Shown here one piece after another: positions 1-60,462 of a stretch of DNA of 64,000 bases. The position numbers and the translations under genes were made by a program. This stretch comes from Gemmatimonadaceae bacterium (lineage in GTDB: Bacteria; Gemmatimonadota; Gemmatimonadetes; Gemmatimonadales; Gemmatimonadaceae). The stretch covers positions 1 through 64,000 of the forward strand of contig CANGXD010000006.1 of NCBI GenBank assembly GCA_947457545.1. Reading direction: 5' to 3'. The notes under the pieces are model-generated. The model had not been told where the DNA came from. It searched no databases and saw only the letters and a program-made list of their open reading frames with translations. Every line of letters starts with the position of its first letter. Within the stretch, counting starts at the first letter, position 1.

Positions 1-112
1 GGAGGGGGACTACGGGAGGGGGACTACGGGAGGGGGACTACGGGAGGGGGACTACGGGAGGGGGACTACGGGAGGGGGACTACGGGAGGGCAACTACGGT
101 TGGGCAACTACG
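1..112. repeat. Left 14-bp tandem repeat array (G-rich)
   Basis: Eight head-to-tail 14-bp units are visible. Six copies read GGAGGGGGACTACG (1-84), then GGAGGGCAACTACG (85-98) and GTTGGGCAACTACG (99-112). The array runs off the left edge of the window, so the total copy number is unknown. There are no spacers. The unit is nearly the reverse complement of units found at 684-756 on the other side of the four-helix-bundle gene. In both arrays the GCAACTAC-type unit lies nearest the gene and the GGGGACTAC-type units lie farther out. The regularly spaced G-runs could also form quadruplexes (inference). Confidence 0.95.
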
Positions 113-186
113 CTATTGGCGTTTTCGGGATGATGCTGGCGTTCCTTTGGTGATACATGACCGGAACGCTGGCTATACCGTGACAC

Positions 187-567
187 ATGCTCGATTTACG
201 AACACTTCGCGTGCGCCAGGCGGCGCGTGCTTTGACGGAAGCAACTCATACACTCGCAGACGAGATGGACTGCCGGCGCGTTCCTACGCTGCGCGCGCAG
301 ATGTTGGCGGCGGCGGACTCCGTTCCGGCCAACATCGCCGAAGGGGCGCGACAAACGTCCACCGCGCAGTCGCTCCATTTCCTCCGCATTGCCCGCGGTT
401 CCGCCGACGAACTCGGCGTACACCTCGAGACCGCCATTGATGCCCGCGCCATTCCGCGCAGCCGCTACATAGCCTGCCAAGGCACTCGCACCGTCGTCTG
501 CACCATGCTCCACAGACTCATCAGGGCCATCGAAGAGCGCGATGCCCAAGAGAAACACTACGCCTAA
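187..567 (+). CDS. Four-helix bundle protein, S23/IVP family
   Basis: This 126-residue protein carries the family hallmark VPANIAEGARQ near residues 47-57, followed by amphipathic helices. This matches the small four-helix-bundle family found as the 23S rRNA intervening-sequence protein and related to Avd, the accessory protein of diversity-generating retroelements. Members form barrel-like pentamers and bind nucleic acid; the cellular role of stand-alone copies is not known. The start ATG at 187 has no clear Shine-Dalgarno sequence. The gene sits alone between two 14-bp repeat arrays of opposite orientation, so a transcript across the locus could fold into a long stem with the gene in the loop, as in rRNA intervening sequences (inference). 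No reverse transcriptase or rRNA is nearby. Confidence 0.88.
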   Translation: MLDLRTLRVRQAARALTEATHTLADEMDCRRVPTLRAQMLAAADSVPANIAEGARQTSTAQSLHFLRIARGSADELGVHLETAIDARAIPRSRYIACQGTRTVVCTMLHRLIRAIEERDAQEKHYA

Positions 568-571
568 CCGA

Positions 572-683
572 GCGGTCGCGGGGGCGCGGTCGCGGGGGCG
601 CGGTCGCGGGGGCGCGGTCGCGGGGTCGTGGTCGCGGGGTCGTGGTCGCGGGGTCGTGGTCGCGGGGTCGTGGTCGCGGGGTC
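572..683. repeat. GC-rich 14-bp tandem repeat array
   Basis: Eight 14-bp units follow the four-helix-bundle stop codon by 4 bp. Three copies read GCGGTCGCGGGGGC (572-613), one is the intermediate GCGGTCGCGGGGTC (614-627), and four read GTGGTCGCGGGGTC (628-683). The unit length equals that of the flanking arrays, but the sequence differs. The stepwise variants point to growth by slippage or unequal crossing-over. Confidence 0.93.
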
Positions 684-767
684 GTGGTTGCCCTCCCGTG
701 TTTCCCCTCGCGTAGTTCCCCTCCCGTAGTTCCCCTCCCGTCGTTCCCCTACCGTAGTTCACCCCAA
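684..767. repeat. Right 14-bp repeat array, inverted relative to the left array
   Basis: Units read outward as GTGGTTGCCCTCCC (684-697), GTGTTTCCCCTCGC (698-711), GTAGTTCCCCTCCC (712-725 and 726-739), GTCGTTCCCCTACC (740-753) and a partial GTAGTTCACCCC from 754. The reverse complement of the main unit, GGGAGGGGAACTAC, matches the left-array unit GGGAGGGGGACTAC at all but one position. The last unit overlaps the stop codon of the minus-strand esterase, so the array fills the whole intergenic space. Confidence 0.92.
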
Positions 768-1784
768 CCGCAGTACCGAAAGCAAGAACGCGACGCTTTC
801 CCGCACATGCTCCCTCCAGTACCCCCACGTGTGCGCCCCCGGGTACTCCCGGTAATCGTGCACCACACCGAGCCGCGTGAGCGACGCGTCGAAATCGCGG
901 TTATGCGGCAACCACGTGTCGTCCACACCGATGTCGAAGCGCAGCGCCGGCCACGCGGCCTCGCCGCGCCGCACGCGCGCGGCCAGTCGTTCGGCCAGGG
1001 TCGCCGGGTCGCGGCCGCGCCACGCGAGCGTGTCGGTGCCGAAAACGGCGCGCAGATTGGACCACAGGTGACGGGCCCCCGTAGCGAGTTCGGCGGTGGT
1101 GCGCCCGTACCGGTCGGGAGCGGTGGGAAGCGCGCCGATCCGCAAACGCGGTGACAACACCCCCGAATGGCTCGAGGCGGCGGCGAATACGTCGGGATAC
1201 GCCAGCGCGAGGGTGATCGCACCGTAGCCCCCCATGCTCAAGCCGGCGATGCCGCGGCTGTCGCGCGTGCCACCGGTGCGATAGGTGCGGTCCATGTGCG
1301 AGACGATGTCGTGCGCGACGTAATCGTCGTAGTGCGGCCACGGCACACAGAAGGTTGCGGCCGGCTCGCGGCGCACCGTGTCGGCGGCGCAGCCGGCGTC
1401 GGGGAGCGTGGCCCACGTGGTGTACCAGCCATCGTCGCCGTCGGGCATGGCGATGATCGCCTCTTTGCCACCCGCCGCGACGAGCGAATCCATGATGCGG
1501 TGCAGCGTCCCGGCGTTGATCCAGTCGCGCTCGTTCCCGCTCTTGCCGTGCAGCAGCACCAGCAGCGGGTAGCGTTGCGTGCCACGGCCATACGACGGCG
1601 GCAAGTACACCGTGAGCGACTTCTTCACCCCAAGCGACTGCGCCCACAGCGTATCCGTGCGGACGGTGCCGGCCGCGATGGGCGATGCGGGCGCGGCTTG
1701 CGCGGCCAACGGCGCAGCACCAACCGCCGAGCCCACCAGCAGCGCGGTCCCCAGCATGACCTGTCGAAGAGTCGTTCGCTTCAT
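759..1784 (-). CDS. Secreted alpha/beta-hydrolase esterase (esterase D/PHB depolymerase-like)
   Basis: The 341-residue protein begins with a signal peptide (residues 1-30, ending APLAAQA). A mature alpha/beta-hydrolase domain of the putative esterase family (PF00756) follows. LLVLLHG near residue 75 forms the oxyanion region, GLSMGGYGA places the nucleophile at Ser183, and HTWGYWREHV near the C-terminus carries the likely catalytic His. It probably hydrolyses carboxyl esters in the periplasm or outside; the substrate cannot be read. The open frame extends upstream into lepB, but the ATG at 1784, immediately before the signal peptide, is the sensible start. It lies 28 bp downstream of lepB in the same direction. 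Its stop codon lies inside the last unit of the right repeat array. Confidence 0.87.
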   Translation of the reverse strand: MKRTTLRQVMLGTALLVGSAVGAAPLAAQAAPASPIAAGTVRTDTLWAQSLGVKKSLTVYLPPSYGRGTQRYPLLVLLHGKSGNERDWINAGTLHRIMDSLVAAGGKEAIIAMPDGDDGWYTTWATLPDAGCAADTVRREPAATFCVPWPHYDDYVAHDIVSHMDRTYRTGGTRDSRGIAGLSMGGYGAITLALAYPDVFAAASSHSGVLSPRLRIGALPTAPDRYGRTTAELATGARHLWSNLRAVFGTDTLAWRGRDPATLAERLAARVRRGEAAWPALRFDIGVDDTWLPHNRDFDASLTRLGVVHDYREYPGAHTWGYWREHVRESVAFLLSVLRLG

Positions 1785-2737: not shown

Positions 2738-3166
2738 TTACGACAGGTGCTTGGAGACCAGCTTGGTCATGTCGAACATGCTGACCGAGGCCTTGCCGCC
2801 GAACACCTTCTTGAGCTTGTCGTCGGCGTTGATCTGGCGCTTGTTCTTCTGATCCTGCAGGCCGTTCTTCTTGATGTAGACCCAAAGCTTCTTCACGACT
2901 TCCGTGCGCGGAAGTCCCTTTTCGCCGACGATCGCGGCGAGTTCGGCGCTCGGGGTGAGCGGCTTCATGAACGCCGCGTTCGGCGCGCGCTTGGCGGCCT
3001 TCTTGGCGGGGGCCTTCTTCACGGCGGCCTTCTTGGCCGGCGCCGCCTTCTTGGCGGGAGCGGCCTTCTTGGCCGGAGCCTTCTTCGCAGCGGCCTTCTT
3101 GGCCGGGGCCTTCTTGGCAGCCTTCTTGGGTGCAGCCTTCTTCGCGGACTTTTTCGCAGCGGCCAT
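2738..3166 (-). CDS. Histone H1-like protein with SWIB domain
   Basis: The 142-residue protein has two parts. Residues 1-62 are a lysine/alanine tail of repeated AKKAPAKK-type elements, like eukaryotic H1 tails and bacterial HC1/AlgP-like proteins. Residues 65-142 form a SWIB/MDM2 domain ([56 protein letters not shown]). The tail should bind DNA non-specifically; SWIB domains mediate protein contacts in chromatin remodellers and occur in chlamydiae and other bacteria. A nucleoid-organising role is inferred. The ATG at 3166 is preceded by a clear Shine-Dalgarno sequence (CAGGAGACGAC-ATG), which suggests high expression. A strong hairpin terminator follows the gene. Confidence 0.9.
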
Positions 3167-13897: not shown

Positions 13898-16800
13898 ATG
13901 CACGCACATCTGGCTCGTGGTTCGTTTCACGACGATTTCGTTGGCTCCCCGTATGCCCCGCGCGACGCCTGCGGCGTAGGGTTCATCGCCCGTCAAAGCG
14001 GCGAACGGACGCACGAGGTCGTGAGCCTGGCGCTCGAGGCCGCGGCTCGGCTGGCGCACCGTGGCGCCTCCTCTACGGACAACTCCGCCGACGGCGCCGG
14101 CCTCCTCACGCAGATTCCGCGGCGGTTGTTCATCCTGGCGGCATCACGCCTCGGCATCCATCTGCCCGCCGACGCCGCGATCGGCGTCGGCATGTGCTTC
14201 CTCCCCGCCGAGCCGCAGGCGTGCGAAGAAGCGATGTCGCTCGTGAATGAGGTGCTGCTGGGCGACGGGATTCCGGTGTTGGGGTGGCGCGACGTGCCGG
14301 TGCGCCCGGAGGTCCTTGGCGCCACCGCGCGCGCGGCCATGCCGTTCATCAAGCAGGTGCTCGTGGGTCGACCGGCGGGCAGCGATGACGACAGCTGGGA
14401 GCGTCAGCTGTATCTCTCGCGCCGCGAGATGGAGCATCGCGCCATCGCGCGTGGGCTCGAGCCGTTCTACATCTGCTCATTGTCGTGCCGCACCGTGGTG
14501 TACAAGGGGCTGCTCACCGGCGGCCAGTTGGGAGATTTCTTCCCTGACCTGCGCGACCCGGCATTCGAGACCGCAATCGCGGTCTTTCACGAACGCTACG
14601 CCACCAACACCATGCCGCGCTGGGAGCTGGCGCAGCCGTTCCGCATGCTGGCCCACAACGGCGAAATCAACACGCTCTGGGGGAACCGCAACGGCATGGA
14701 GATGCGTGGCTCGCTTCTCGAGGCTCCGGCATTCGGCGACCATGCGGCGCGCGTACGTGATCCGATCCGGCCCCGCGGCAGCGACTCGGCCAGTCTCGAC
14801 AACGCGCTCGAACTGCTGTCGCGCGCCGGCCGCGCGCCGGTACACGCGGCCATGATGCTCGTGCCGCAAGCGTGGGAGAAGTTTCCCGACGTCGAGCCGG
14901 CGGTGAAGGCGTTCTACGAATTCCATCAGTGCGTCATCGAGCCGTGGGACGGTCCCGCCGCGCTGGCGTTCAGTGATGGCGTCACGGTCGCCGTGTCACT
15001 CGATCGCAATGGCCTGCGCCCCTGCCGCTACAAAATTCGCGCCGATGGCATGGTGGTCGCCGGCTCGGAAGTCGGCATCGTCGACTTCGACCCGCGCGAT
15101 GTCGTGGAGACGGGCAAGCTCGGTCCCGGTGGCGTCTTCCTCATCGATACTGCCGGCAAGCGCATCGTGCGCAACATGGCCGCCAAGCGCGAAGTGGCCA
15201 CGCGGCGTCCGTACGCCAAGTGGATTGCGCAGCACATGTCTACGCTCCCCACGAGTGATGGCGCCGAACCGCTGGTACGCTCCAGCGACCAACTGCGCGC
15301 CACGCAGATGGCGTTCGGCTATGGGCACGAAGATCTCCGCATGGTGCTCGAGCCCATGGCCAGCACCGCCGCCGAAGTCGTGTGGAGCATGGGTGACGAT
15401 GCACCGCTGGCGGTGCTTTCCCCGAACTCTCCGCCGCTGTACGCCTTCTTCCGCCAGCGTTTCGCGCAGGTGACGAATCCGCCCATGGATTCGCTGCGCG
15501 AGAGCATGGTCATGTCGTTGCGCATGCATCTCGGTCGGCGTGGATCACCGTTGGTGGAAAAGTCGTCGTACGCACGCATGCTGCGGGTGGAGCATCCGGT
15601 GTTGCTTCCCGACGAGATGGCGGCGCTGCGGGCGTTCCCGCAGTTCCCCAGTGCCACCCTCGACGCTACGTACAACGCGCGCTCCCGGTCGGAAGCGCTT
15701 GAGGCTGCGCTCGACTCGCTCTGCCGTCGCGCCGAAGTCGCGGCACGGAAAGGCGCGCGCTTGCTGATCATCAGCGATCGCAGGGTGAGCGCCGACCGCG
15801 CCCCCATTCCGGCGCTGCTGGCGCTCGGCTCGGTACGACAGCATCTCGTGCGCACCGGTCTTCGCGCACGCGTTGGACTCGTGGTGGAGGTCGGCGATGC
15901 CATCGAACAACATCACATGGCGACGCTCTTCGGCTACGGTGCCGAAGCGGTGCATCCGTGGCTCGCCATGGAAACCGTGGCCACGGTGTTTGCCGAGGCG
16001 CACGGCAAAGCGGACGCTGACCCTGAGCGCCCGGGACCGGCACTTGCCCAGTCGCGATATCGTGCCGCCATCGAGAAGGGGTTGCTCAAGGTGCTCGCGA
16101 AGATGGGCATCAGCACACTCTCGAGTTATTGCGGCGCGCAGACATTCGATGCGCTTGGCCTTGGCTCCGACGTCATCGATCGCTGTTTCTCGGGTACGGC
16201 GTCGCCGCTGGGCGGGCTCTCGCTGCGCGAACTGAGTGAAGATGTGCTGCAGCGTCACCGCCGCGCGTACACCGCCGATGGCGCGCCGCAGGCCACGCTC
16301 CCCGATCACGGTCGTGTGCGCTTCCGCAAGGAGGGTGAGGTCCATGCGTGGGCCCCACAAACCGTGCTCGCCCTGCAGCAATCCGTTGGGAGTGCCCGTG
16401 CCACGCGCGCCGGTACCAGCTCTGATGATGCCTGGCGCACCTTCGCGCAGCGCCTCGACGGCGGTGCGCCGGCGAGCATTCGCGATCTGCTCGGCATTCG
16501 AGCGGGCACCGCCGTGCCCATCGACGAAGTCGAGCCCATGGAAGCCATTCGCGCGCGATTCATTTCGAGTGCGATGTCGCTTGGTGCCCTGTCGCCGGAA
16601 GCACACGAAACGCTCACGATCGCGATGAATCGGATGCAGGCGCGATCGAACAGCGGCGAAGGCGGTGAAGACCCGGCGTTCTATCGAGATGAGGGCAGCG
16701 ATCGTCGCGACAGCCGCATCAAGCAGGTCGCGTCGGCGCGCTTTGGTGTGACAACGGAATACCTGGTCCGCGCCGAAGAAATTGAGATCAAGATCGTGCA

Positions 16801-59800: not shown

Positions 59801-60462
59801 GGCAGGAACGCACACTCGAGCGCACGCGTGATCTCGTGTCGGGGATGGAATCGCTGCGCGAACGCGTGGCGCAACGCGCGCAGGGACAGCAGGGACAGCA
59901 AGGCCAGCAGGGCCAGCAGGGCCAGCAGGGCCAGCAAGGCCAGCAAGGCCAGCAAGGCCAGCAGGGCCAGCAGGGCCAGCAGGGCCAGGGCCAACAGGGG
60001 CAACAGGGCGCACGCGGCGGTGCGGCACAAGGCGCGGCGCGTCCCGGTGGACAGCCTGGCAATCAGATGGGACGTGGTGGAGGTGCGATGCCTACCGGGG
60101 TCACGCGCGCCGACGCTGAGCAGTTCGCACGGGAAATGCGCATGCGCAGGCAGAGCGCCGAAGAGGTGCGCCGTGACGCCGCCGCGCAGGGCGTCGGCAC
60201 GCAAGATCTCGATCGGGCCATTCAGGCGATGCGCGAGTTCGAGAACAGCGGCGGCTTTGGCGATCCCAAAGGCGTAGAGCAGCTCCAGAGCGCGCTGGTC
60301 GAACGGCTCAAGGACTTCGAGTTCTCGCTCTATCGCGCCGTGGCCGGCAGCGCGGAAGGTCGCCCCGCGGTTGGCGCGCGGACGAGTGCGCCCGCGGAAT
60401 ACCGCCAGATGGTCGAGGAGTACTACCGCTCGCTGGCCGGCGGAAAGAAACGGGCGCCGTAA
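56848..60462 (+). CDS. DUF4175 family large membrane protein with Gln/Gly repeats
   Basis: About 1,204 residues from ATG 56848; the longer open frame upstream overlaps the BatA-like gene and is not used. Two N-terminal hydrophobic helices (about 28-80) and a third near 155-175 precede a beta-rich domain. The C-terminal half is helical and very rich in Gln, Glu, Arg and Ala, typical of coiled coil. Low-complexity segments are a 10-Gly tract at about 647-656 and roughly 14 QQG repeats at 1,011-1,053. DUF4175 is a poorly understood family often found at the end of MoxR operons. It ends at a strong bidirectional hairpin. Confidence 0.88.
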   Translation: MSPDRQLLTTLAALRRQWRLRVLLESLVWLAVAVVLATVAALVVMRLTDGSATGPVIARAFGYMVVAGALVYGLFVPLLRRASDERFALYVEEREPSLKQALLTAVQEAQLPEHERPSPSLSARLMSRAAAAIRPLEAHMALERPRMIRAGQAFAGVSAGAALLLFFGPQAVRDVARLLFVPYSTAQAAVPVRMLSVTPGNTSVPRGGAIEVEAALVGFAASNAELVFRSDSAGEWQRLPMAPDADSSRFGSRLFDIVQRTEYYVESAEVRSAIFTLTVNDLPAVSRVSLDLQFPSYSGLPAEHIEDTGDLAAVVGTTVVVRAKVTRAVAGGTLRFDDGRTVAMARESDSTVVGRFTVQKSGFYHVDLSTADGTVVAGGVEYVVDAIPDRAPIVRIEEPGRDTKVSNTDEVTIAVQASDDLGVRSLELRYRVNGGDEKRVTIASGSSRPRDTRGAHTLFLEEMSLQPGDLVAYHAVAKDGAGLVGSSDVYFLEVRPFGKDYRQSDQRAQQQQQGGGGQPQGDSPDGFVARQREVVAGTFNWLRDSAATNAKQRRENMTTLAIAEGRLREDVDQLVKRLAERGVAAQDTNFAKIRAELQQATVELKSAEEQLGLVRGNDALGPEQRALQRLQRAEALYRDVQVQMGGGGGGGGGGGGGQQRAEDLADLFELQNDKQRNQYETVQQQRAQDGAQPQVDETLDRLRQLASRQQQENERMQRMAEAMRQRMAQDGGASGSSAGGASSGGASSGAAGRSSSGSPSGGNNASGAQRELARQAEEEARRLERLAREENNQELQRAAQQLQQAADNMRRAATGSSAQGSAALEELNRAARNLEGARASGTTRGIQELADKARDLEARQQQIAESVKEMQGASAGERAQRQQQLSQQKDKLSADVRQLESAADRLSRAARREQPKAAGQVAGAADAIRETRLADKIDFSKQVARSGSAEYAEAFENQIGENLRDVSERLRSASGALQGESASRGQERTLERTRDLVSGMESLRERVAQRAQGQQGQQGQQGQQGQQGQQGQQGQQGQQGQQGQQGQGQQGQQGARGGAAQGAARPGGQPGNQMGRGGGAMPTGVTRADAEQFAREMRMRRQSAEEVRRDAAAQGVGTQDLDRAIQAMREFENSGGFGDPKGVEQLQSALVERLKDFEFSLYRAVAGSAEGRPAVGARTSAPAEYRQMVEEYYRSLAGGKKRAP
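58781..58818. repeat. Glycine-codon tract in the DUF4175 gene
   Basis: A run of GGN codons encoding ten or more glycines. It is a likely flexible linker between the coiled-coil segments and a slippage-prone site. Confidence 0.8.
59881..60008. repeat. 9-bp tandem repeats encoding QQG in the DUF4175 gene
   Basis: About 14 units of CAGCAAGGC type with synonymous variants (CAGCAGGGC, CAGCAGGGA) keep the frame because the unit is 9 bp. One unit is shortened to QG near 59987. Copy number should vary between strains by slippage without breaking the protein. Confidence 0.9.

What the first reader, a model, noticed from the sequence alone, without database searches (positions are those of the whole stretch)
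1..767. Four-helix-bundle gene enclosed by mirror-image 14-bp repeat arrays
Seen: the left unit GGAGGGGGACTACG and the right unit GTAGTTCCCCTCCC are near reverse complements, and the order of variants is also mirrored (GCCC/GGGC-type unit nearest the gene on both sides). Known: the S23/IVP protein in Leptospira and Coxiella is encoded inside a 23S rRNA intervening sequence flanked by inverted repeats, and Avd is its relative. Inference: a transcript of this locus could form a long repeat-built stem with the gene in its loop. This would be a free-standing, rRNA-independent version of the intervening-sequence element, possibly mobile or processed by a double-strand RNase.
Basis: partly seen in the sequence, partly recalled or inferred. 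Interest (0 to 1): 0.8.

Follow-up and report, generated by a model that had tools for sequence, protein, structure and literature searches.

The report
S23 genes inside dispersed repeat hairpins
A small bacterial protein gene of unknown function (the S23 or 23S-rRNA-intervening-sequence family) sits in the loop of a long palindrome built of short repeats; the same palindromes are scattered gene-free through the genome, and the arrangement recurs across many bacterial phyla, which suggests an undescribed family of mobile repeat elements.

Summary
Window 187-567 encodes a PF05635 (S23/IVP) four-helix-bundle protein enclosed by inverted 14-bp arrays. Window position 1 is a contig end; the left half continues in contig C90, as sibling genomes confirm. 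The element ends in ACTGCGGTT(G/T)GGG..., and about a dozen gene-less palindromes with the same ends and units are scattered through this genome. Most congeners lack the element at this locus; three carry palindromes of other families there. In Gemmatimonadales 29 of 40 S23 genes are enclosed by long inverted repeats (control positions 0/1339), and in other phyla 47/74 (14/1495). The arms are usually heptanucleotide arrays (lag-7 identity 0.69 against 0.26), and dispersed copies were found in a cyanobacterium and alphaproteobacteria. In one genome 20 of 23 sampled heptamer arrays match the arms of its own S23 genes and none match arms from 12 other genomes. Reverse transcriptase was absent from 8 genomes tested, Y1 transposase from two palindrome-bearing ones. 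Best explanation: a free-standing, rRNA-independent S23 element whose gene-less derivatives supply many bacterial heptamer palindromes, working like REP/RAYT but with an unrelated protein. Anatomy and dispersal are shown. Mobilisation by S23 is inferred.

The parts
1..112 (-). Left inverted array, 14-bp unit GGAGGGGGACTACG x8; truncated by the contig end. It continues in contig C90:15208-15362, where the left terminal repeat ACTGCGGTTGGGGTGAACTACG lies
187..567 (+). S23/IVP (PF05635) four-helix-bundle protein gene, 126 aa, in the loop; purifying selection, dN/dS 0.10-0.18
572..688 (+). Inner 14-bp array GCGGTCGCGGGGTC/GTGGTCGCGGGGTC x8.4, equivalent to the inner arms of gene-less copies
683..766 (+). 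Right inverted array, unit CGTAGTTCCCCTCC, about 6 copies
753..774 (-). Right terminal inverted repeat ACTGCGGTTGGGGTGAACTACG (element end); its TGA is the stop codon of the neighbouring esterase-like gene
759..1784 (-). Neighbouring esterase-like gene (start approximate). The element sits between it and the C90 gene; most congeners have the two genes adjacent without it

Best explanation
It is a free-standing S23 element: a mobile, palindromic repeat element whose loop carries a gene for an S23/IVP four-helix-bundle protein. SHOWN: the gene lies between inverted arrays; many gene-less palindromes with the same ends and units are dispersed in the same genome; sites are occupied, empty, or occupied by unrelated palindrome families in related genomes; the gene is under purifying selection; the same anatomy recurs across phyla with arms mostly of 7-nt repeats. 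INFERRED: the S23 protein, structurally like the nucleic-acid-binding Avd, recognises the repeat arms as a hairpin (single-stranded DNA or RNA) and promotes copying or insertion of the hairpin at new sites, often just downstream of stop codons. Gene-less copies are then non-autonomous derivatives moved in trans, and array length changes by slippage. The 23S rRNA intervening sequences of Leptospira and Coxiella would be the rRNA-inserted members of this wider kind.
For: Inverted repeats enclose 29/40 Gemmatimonadales S23 genes against 0/1339 control positions; 7 of the other 11 have shorter inverted repeats of 25-37 bits. Across other phyla 47/74 against 14/1495. Periodicity of the arms at lags 7, 14 and 21 only. 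Own genome: about a dozen gene-less copies with the same ends. G028: the ends of its L107 S23 element match 43 places, control 0. Bosea 50 vs 0, Phormidium 162 vs 2, Rhizobiaceae 15 vs 0. G035: 20/23 arrays from sampled regions match its own S23 arms and 0 match S23 arms of 12 other genomes. Heptamer arrays per about 200 kb: 23 and 10 in genomes with 10 and 12 S23 genes; 0, 2, 0, 0 in four genomes without S23. Empty or differently occupied sites. The 14-bp arrays occur in own, G006 and G017 only, of 30 congeners. No RVT_1 in 8 genomes; no Y1_Tnp in G028 or G035. dN/dS 0.10-0.18. Fold: S23 structures 2gsc and 2rld, then Avd 8ub7 and 4dwl.
Against: No movement was observed and no biochemical link between S23 and the arms exists. 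S23 has no recognisable catalytic motif. G029 has 5 S23 genes but few palindromes or arrays in the regions sampled, and G028 has few arrays by this detector; in G037 only 2 of 10 arrays matched any sampled S23 arm. Some S23 genes lack detectable inverted repeats. DDE transposases were not searched for (argued against only by the lack of target-site duplication). The window family has period 14 with no 7-nt sub-period. Co-occurrence of the 14-bp family with its S23 gene rests on one clade of three siblings.
Confidence: 0.6

Rival explanations
1. Post-transcriptional regulator: S23 binds heptamer hairpins in transcripts, its own included, and the dispersed palindromes at gene 3' ends are its regulon, spread by other means such as recombination or template switching. 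The S23 locus is an autoregulated member.
For: Elements often lie near stop codons and 3' ends. A gene-less copy folds into a near-perfect RNA hairpin (-252 kcal/mol, z -23.8). MacGregor 2015 (PMC4679880) proposed a regulatory network for TAACTGA heptamers and an unidentified repeat-binding protein.
Against: Orthologous sites are empty or carry unrelated palindrome families between congeners, so there is no conserved regulon. Families differ wholly between genomes. A regulator gene need not lie inside its own target in most cases.
Confidence: 0.2
2. Passenger: palindromes are spread by another machinery and S23 genes are separate mobile ORFs that insert into hairpin loops, in palindromes as in rRNA helices.
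For: In rRNA, intervening sequences replace hairpin loops (PMC4990558). Gene-less copies greatly outnumber gene-bearing ones. Gene-less centres show no evident remnant of the gene.
Against: No common alternative enzyme was found: no reverse transcriptase in 8 genomes and no Y1 transposase in two palindrome-bearing genomes. In G035, 20 of 23 arrays belong to families that flank an S23 gene. Four genomes without S23 have almost no heptamer arrays.
Confidence: 0.15
3. Ordinary intergenic repeat expansion, or a composition or assembly artefact.
For: The left array lies at a contig end; tandem arrays slip easily.
Against: Sibling genomes carry the intact element. Reversed-pattern controls are 0. 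Empty sites exist, and the anatomy recurs across phyla.
Confidence: 0.02

Closest known systems
23S rRNA intervening sequence (IVS) with S23 ORF (Leptospira, Coxiella; PMC4990558)
   Same: S23/IVP ORF in the loop of an inverted-repeat stem, with a transcript that could form a long hairpin
   Different: Here in intergenic DNA, not rRNA; arms are repeat arrays, longer than the 28-bp Coxiella stem; dispersed gene-less copies exist
REP/BIME palindromes with RAYT (TnpA-REP, Y1 transposase)
   Same: Dispersed intergenic palindromes in many copies, and one protein gene flanked by inverted copies of its own family, specific to each genome
   Different: The protein is an unrelated four-helix bundle without a Y1 transposase domain; Y1_Tnp is absent from G028 and G035
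Heptanucleotide repeats: cyanobacterial STRR (own knowledge), GGGAATC of Xanthomonas (PMC4692102), TAACTGA of Beggiatoaceae (PMC4679880)
   Same: 7-nt tandem arrays in intergenic DNA, in Xanthomonas often as inverted pairs (70 pairs reported in X. campestris)
   Different: Searched for S23, 23S and four-helix terms, the two papers held do not mention an S23 gene or a carrier element
Avd of diversity-generating retroelements
   Same: Same four-helix-bundle fold (8ub7 and 4dwl come next after the S23 structures)
   Different: No reverse transcriptase in 8 genomes tested and low sequence identity (10-12%)
MITEs of DDE transposons
   Same: Short, gene-less, inverted-repeat elements related to a gene-bearing one
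   Different: No target-site duplication seen at own-genome insertions; long repeat-built arms; the gene inside is not a transposase

Membership tests
S23/IVP protein family (PF05635) | Match over the curated cut-off and the S23 four-helix-bundle fold | tested here: met
   73.3 bits vs 33.8; AF2 pLDDT 95, best PDB matches 2gsc and 2rld
23S rRNA IVS element | Located inside an rRNA gene | tested here: not met
   Window locus lies between an esterase-like gene and the C90 gene; no rRNA in 20 further S23 loci
23S rRNA IVS element | S23 ORF enclosed by inverted repeats able to form a stem | tested here: met
23S rRNA IVS element | Excision of the transcript by RNase III | not testable with these tools
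   Needs RNA data
REP/RAYT system | Y1/HUH transposase gene flanked by the palindromes | tested here: not met
   Y1_Tnp absent in G028 and G035; the single own-genome Y1 gene has no element ends in its flanks
REP/RAYT system | Dispersed palindromes of the same family as those flanking the gene | tested here: met
Diversity-generating retroelement | Reverse transcriptase in the genome | tested here: not met
   RVT_1 in 0 of 8 genomes
DDE-type MITE | Target-site duplication | tested here: not met
   Flanks of own-genome elements show no direct repeats at the element ends
DDE-type MITE | A full-length DDE transposon with the same terminal repeats | not tested
   No search for DDE families was made
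Heptanucleotide STRR-type repeats | 7-nt tandem period | tested here: inconclusive
   Met for most families; the window's own arrays have period 14 with lag-7 identity 0.18-0.29

The most novel reading that the evidence does not exclude
A new, phylum-spanning class of mobile hairpin element in which a four-helix-bundle protein (S23) without a known catalytic motif, and without transposase or reverse transcriptase, drives the spread of inverted heptamer arrays. It would be the source of heptanucleotide repeats in many bacteria and the ancestor of 23S rRNA intervening sequences.
Probability: 0.4. Interest if true: 0.93.

Novelty: new variant of a known kind. Interest (0 to 1): 0.82.

Why it matters
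S23 proteins are widespread and of unknown function, and heptanucleotide intergenic repeats (STRR, GGGAATC, TAACTGA) have no established origin; one author proposed an unidentified repeat-binding protein. Tying the two together gives a candidate function, explains 23S rRNA intervening sequences as members of a wider element class, and makes both open questions testable with one small protein and a few oligonucleotides.

Tried and rejected
Literature searches for a published link between S23 or four-helix-bundle genes and repeats found none in the held open-access library; the only lead was 23S rRNA IVP in a figure legend on CRISPR-associated proteins (PMC10910872). Reverse transcriptase and Y1 transposase as movers were tested and rejected. 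Target-site duplication was looked for and not seen. Testing Xanthomonas S23 (XCC0516) against its GGGAATC repeats failed because no genome handle from that class was available. The reading of 14 bp as 2x7 within the window family was not supported by lag-7 identity. A first array detector was too strict to be informative. Arms within one element match each other only slightly better than arms of other elements (permutation p 0.015), so coupled evolution of the arms is weak evidence only. Integron cassettes were considered for the toxin-antitoxin-like island and not pursued: by eye the ends do not resemble attC cores.

Full report
OBSERVATION. The window is the start of contig C6 of a draft genome of 321 contigs; homologues in named records and the finding itself point to Gemmatimonadota. 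Positions 1-112 hold 8 copies of GGAGGGGGACTACG and 683-766 hold the inverted unit. Between them ORF 187-567 encodes a PF05635 protein (73.3 bits). A third array at 572-688 (GCGGTCGCGGGGTC) follows the gene. The right end of the element is ACTGCGGTTGGGGTGAACTACG on the minus strand at 753-774. The left half is cut off by the assembly. C90 ends in 27 bases identical to window 79-105 and carries the matching left end at 15208-15229. Sibling genomes G006 and G017 have the whole locus in one piece, with elements of 888 and 709 bp.

ANATOMY IN THE OWN GENOME. The same ends and units occur at about a dozen further places as gene-less palindromes of roughly 260-400 bp (C11, C37, C48, C88, C151, C163, C218 three times, C283, C292). 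They have outer 14-bp arrays, inner GACCCCG-type arrays and a short loop. A gene-less copy folds as RNA to -252 kcal/mol, z -23.8. No target-site duplication is visible. Several copies start at or next to what reads as a stop codon; at the window locus the esterase stop TGA lies in the terminal repeat.

EMPTY AND RE-OCCUPIED SITES. The esterase-like gene and the C90 gene are adjacent with only tens of bases between them in most congeners examined. G028 has a gene-less palindrome of another family there, the family whose S23-bearing member is L107. G015 and G005 have a third family. Joined flanks of six own gene-less elements gave empty sites for C11 (G028), C151 (G028, G013, G023), C163 (G025, G015, G005) and C292 (G025), while the C292 site holds several unrelated palindromes in other genomes. 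The 14-bp array pattern has 75, 85 and 59 matches in own, G006 and G017 and is absent from the other 27 congeners apart from two single weak matches; these three are the genomes with the element at the window locus.

GENERALITY IN THE ORDER. PF05635 occurs in 52 of 61 genomes searched (own and relatives), up to 12 per genome. Of 40 loci fetched, 29 are enclosed by inverted repeats of at least 40 bits within 400 bp, against 0 of 1339 control positions in the same loci. Seven of the remaining 11 have shorter inverted repeats of 25-37 bits. Arm sequences differ from locus to locus.

GENERALITY ACROSS PHYLA. A genome-contig scan returned 80 loci from many phyla. Of 74 usable, 47 are enclosed at 32 bits or more, against 14 of 1495 control positions. 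The arms show identity 0.69 at lag 7 against 0.26 background, with peaks at 14 and 21 and at no other lag; in Gemmatimonadales the value is 0.48. The window's own family is an exception: period 14, lag-7 identity 0.18-0.29. None of 20 such loci scanned lies in rRNA.

DISPERSAL TIED TO S23. In complete genome G028 the ends of the L107 element match 43 places, control 0. In G035, 20 of 23 heptamer arrays found in 200 kb of sampled regions match arms of that genome's own S23 genes and none match arms of S23 genes from 12 other genomes. In G037, where only 4 of 12 S23 loci were in the arm set, only 2 of 10 arrays matched any arm. Heptamer arrays per about 200 kb were 23 (10 S23 genes), 10 (12 S23), 1 (4 S23), 0 (5 S23), and 0, 2, 0, 0 in four genomes without S23, so the trend is suggestive and not strict. 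Outside the phylum a heptamer pattern built from the arms of the S23 loci matches 162 places in Phormidium sp. FACHB-1136 (control 2), 50 in Bosea sp. OK403 (control 0) and 15 in a Rhizobiaceae genome (control 0); most Bosea copies read directly are short gene-less palindromes.

THE PROTEIN. AlphaFold2 gives a four-helix bundle (pLDDT 95) closest to the S23 structures 2gsc and 2rld, then to Avd (8ub7, 4dwl). Residues Q38, N49, A51, E52, G53, S72 and E75 are among the invariant ones in the alignment. dN/dS between siblings is 0.10-0.18, so the protein is under purifying selection.

MECHANISM. No reverse transcriptase was found in 8 genomes and no Y1 transposase in G028 or G035. The S23 gene is the only gene found regularly inside these palindromes in the loci read here. 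The most likely account is a mobile hairpin element in which S23 recognises the repeat arms and promotes their spread in cis and in trans, with host enzymes doing the chemistry. The anatomy, dispersal, site polymorphism and selection are shown; the role of S23 is inferred. Rivals are a regulatory role for S23 at transcript hairpins and a passenger role.

KNOWN AND NEW. Intervening sequences in 23S rRNA with an S23 ORF and inverted repeats are known and have been suspected of mobility (PMC4990558). Heptamer repeats with inverted pairs are known in Xanthomonas, with heptamer repeats also in Nostoc (PMC4692102) and in Beggiatoaceae, where an unidentified repeat-binding protein was proposed (PMC4679880). 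No paper found in the held library links S23 genes to such repeats. The free-standing form, the gene-less dispersed copies and the link to heptamer arrays appear to be new; papers outside the held library could not be checked.

LIMITS. Control positions are mostly coding, where inverted repeats are rarer than in intergenic DNA. The relatives are draft genomes in part. Occupied and empty sites were compared at roughly 70-95% identity, so exact junctions are not resolved, and loss cannot be told from gain at each single site. DDE transposases were not searched.

Noticed in passing
L039 (G000:C218:1-5896): A small island of genes that look like toxin-antitoxin and Fic genes (by eye, no family search), in which successive genes are separated by copies of the 14-bp palindrome; in sibling G017 (L176) one palindrome is followed by the same right flank, which suggests genes accumulated between element copies.
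   Followed up: partly
G000:C207:5582-5890 (L001, L044); G006:C24:28959 and C4:2069: The second S23 gene of the own genome lies among long compound repeats (CTGCCGTCTGCC... ...GGACGGCAGG) of another family; G006 has two S23 hits of identical score and length (134 aa, 90.2 bits), one of which (C24) sits among the same kind of repeat, possibly a recent duplication.
   Followed up: no
G000:C89:7797-7936 (L035), G017:C127:27561-27644 (L478): 14-bp arrays found in one orientation only, probably decayed or half elements.
   Followed up: partly
window 2738-3166 (-): Lys/Ala/Pro-rich histone-H1-like ORF ([10 protein letters not shown] repeats).
   Followed up: no
window 59880-59988: Tandem array of a 9-bp unit GCAGGGCCA, 12 copies.
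   Followed up: no
PMC10910872, figure legend: 23S rRNA IVP is named in a figure on proteins associated with CRISPR adaptation modules and arrays; repeat arrays of the kind described here may underlie that association.
   Followed up: no
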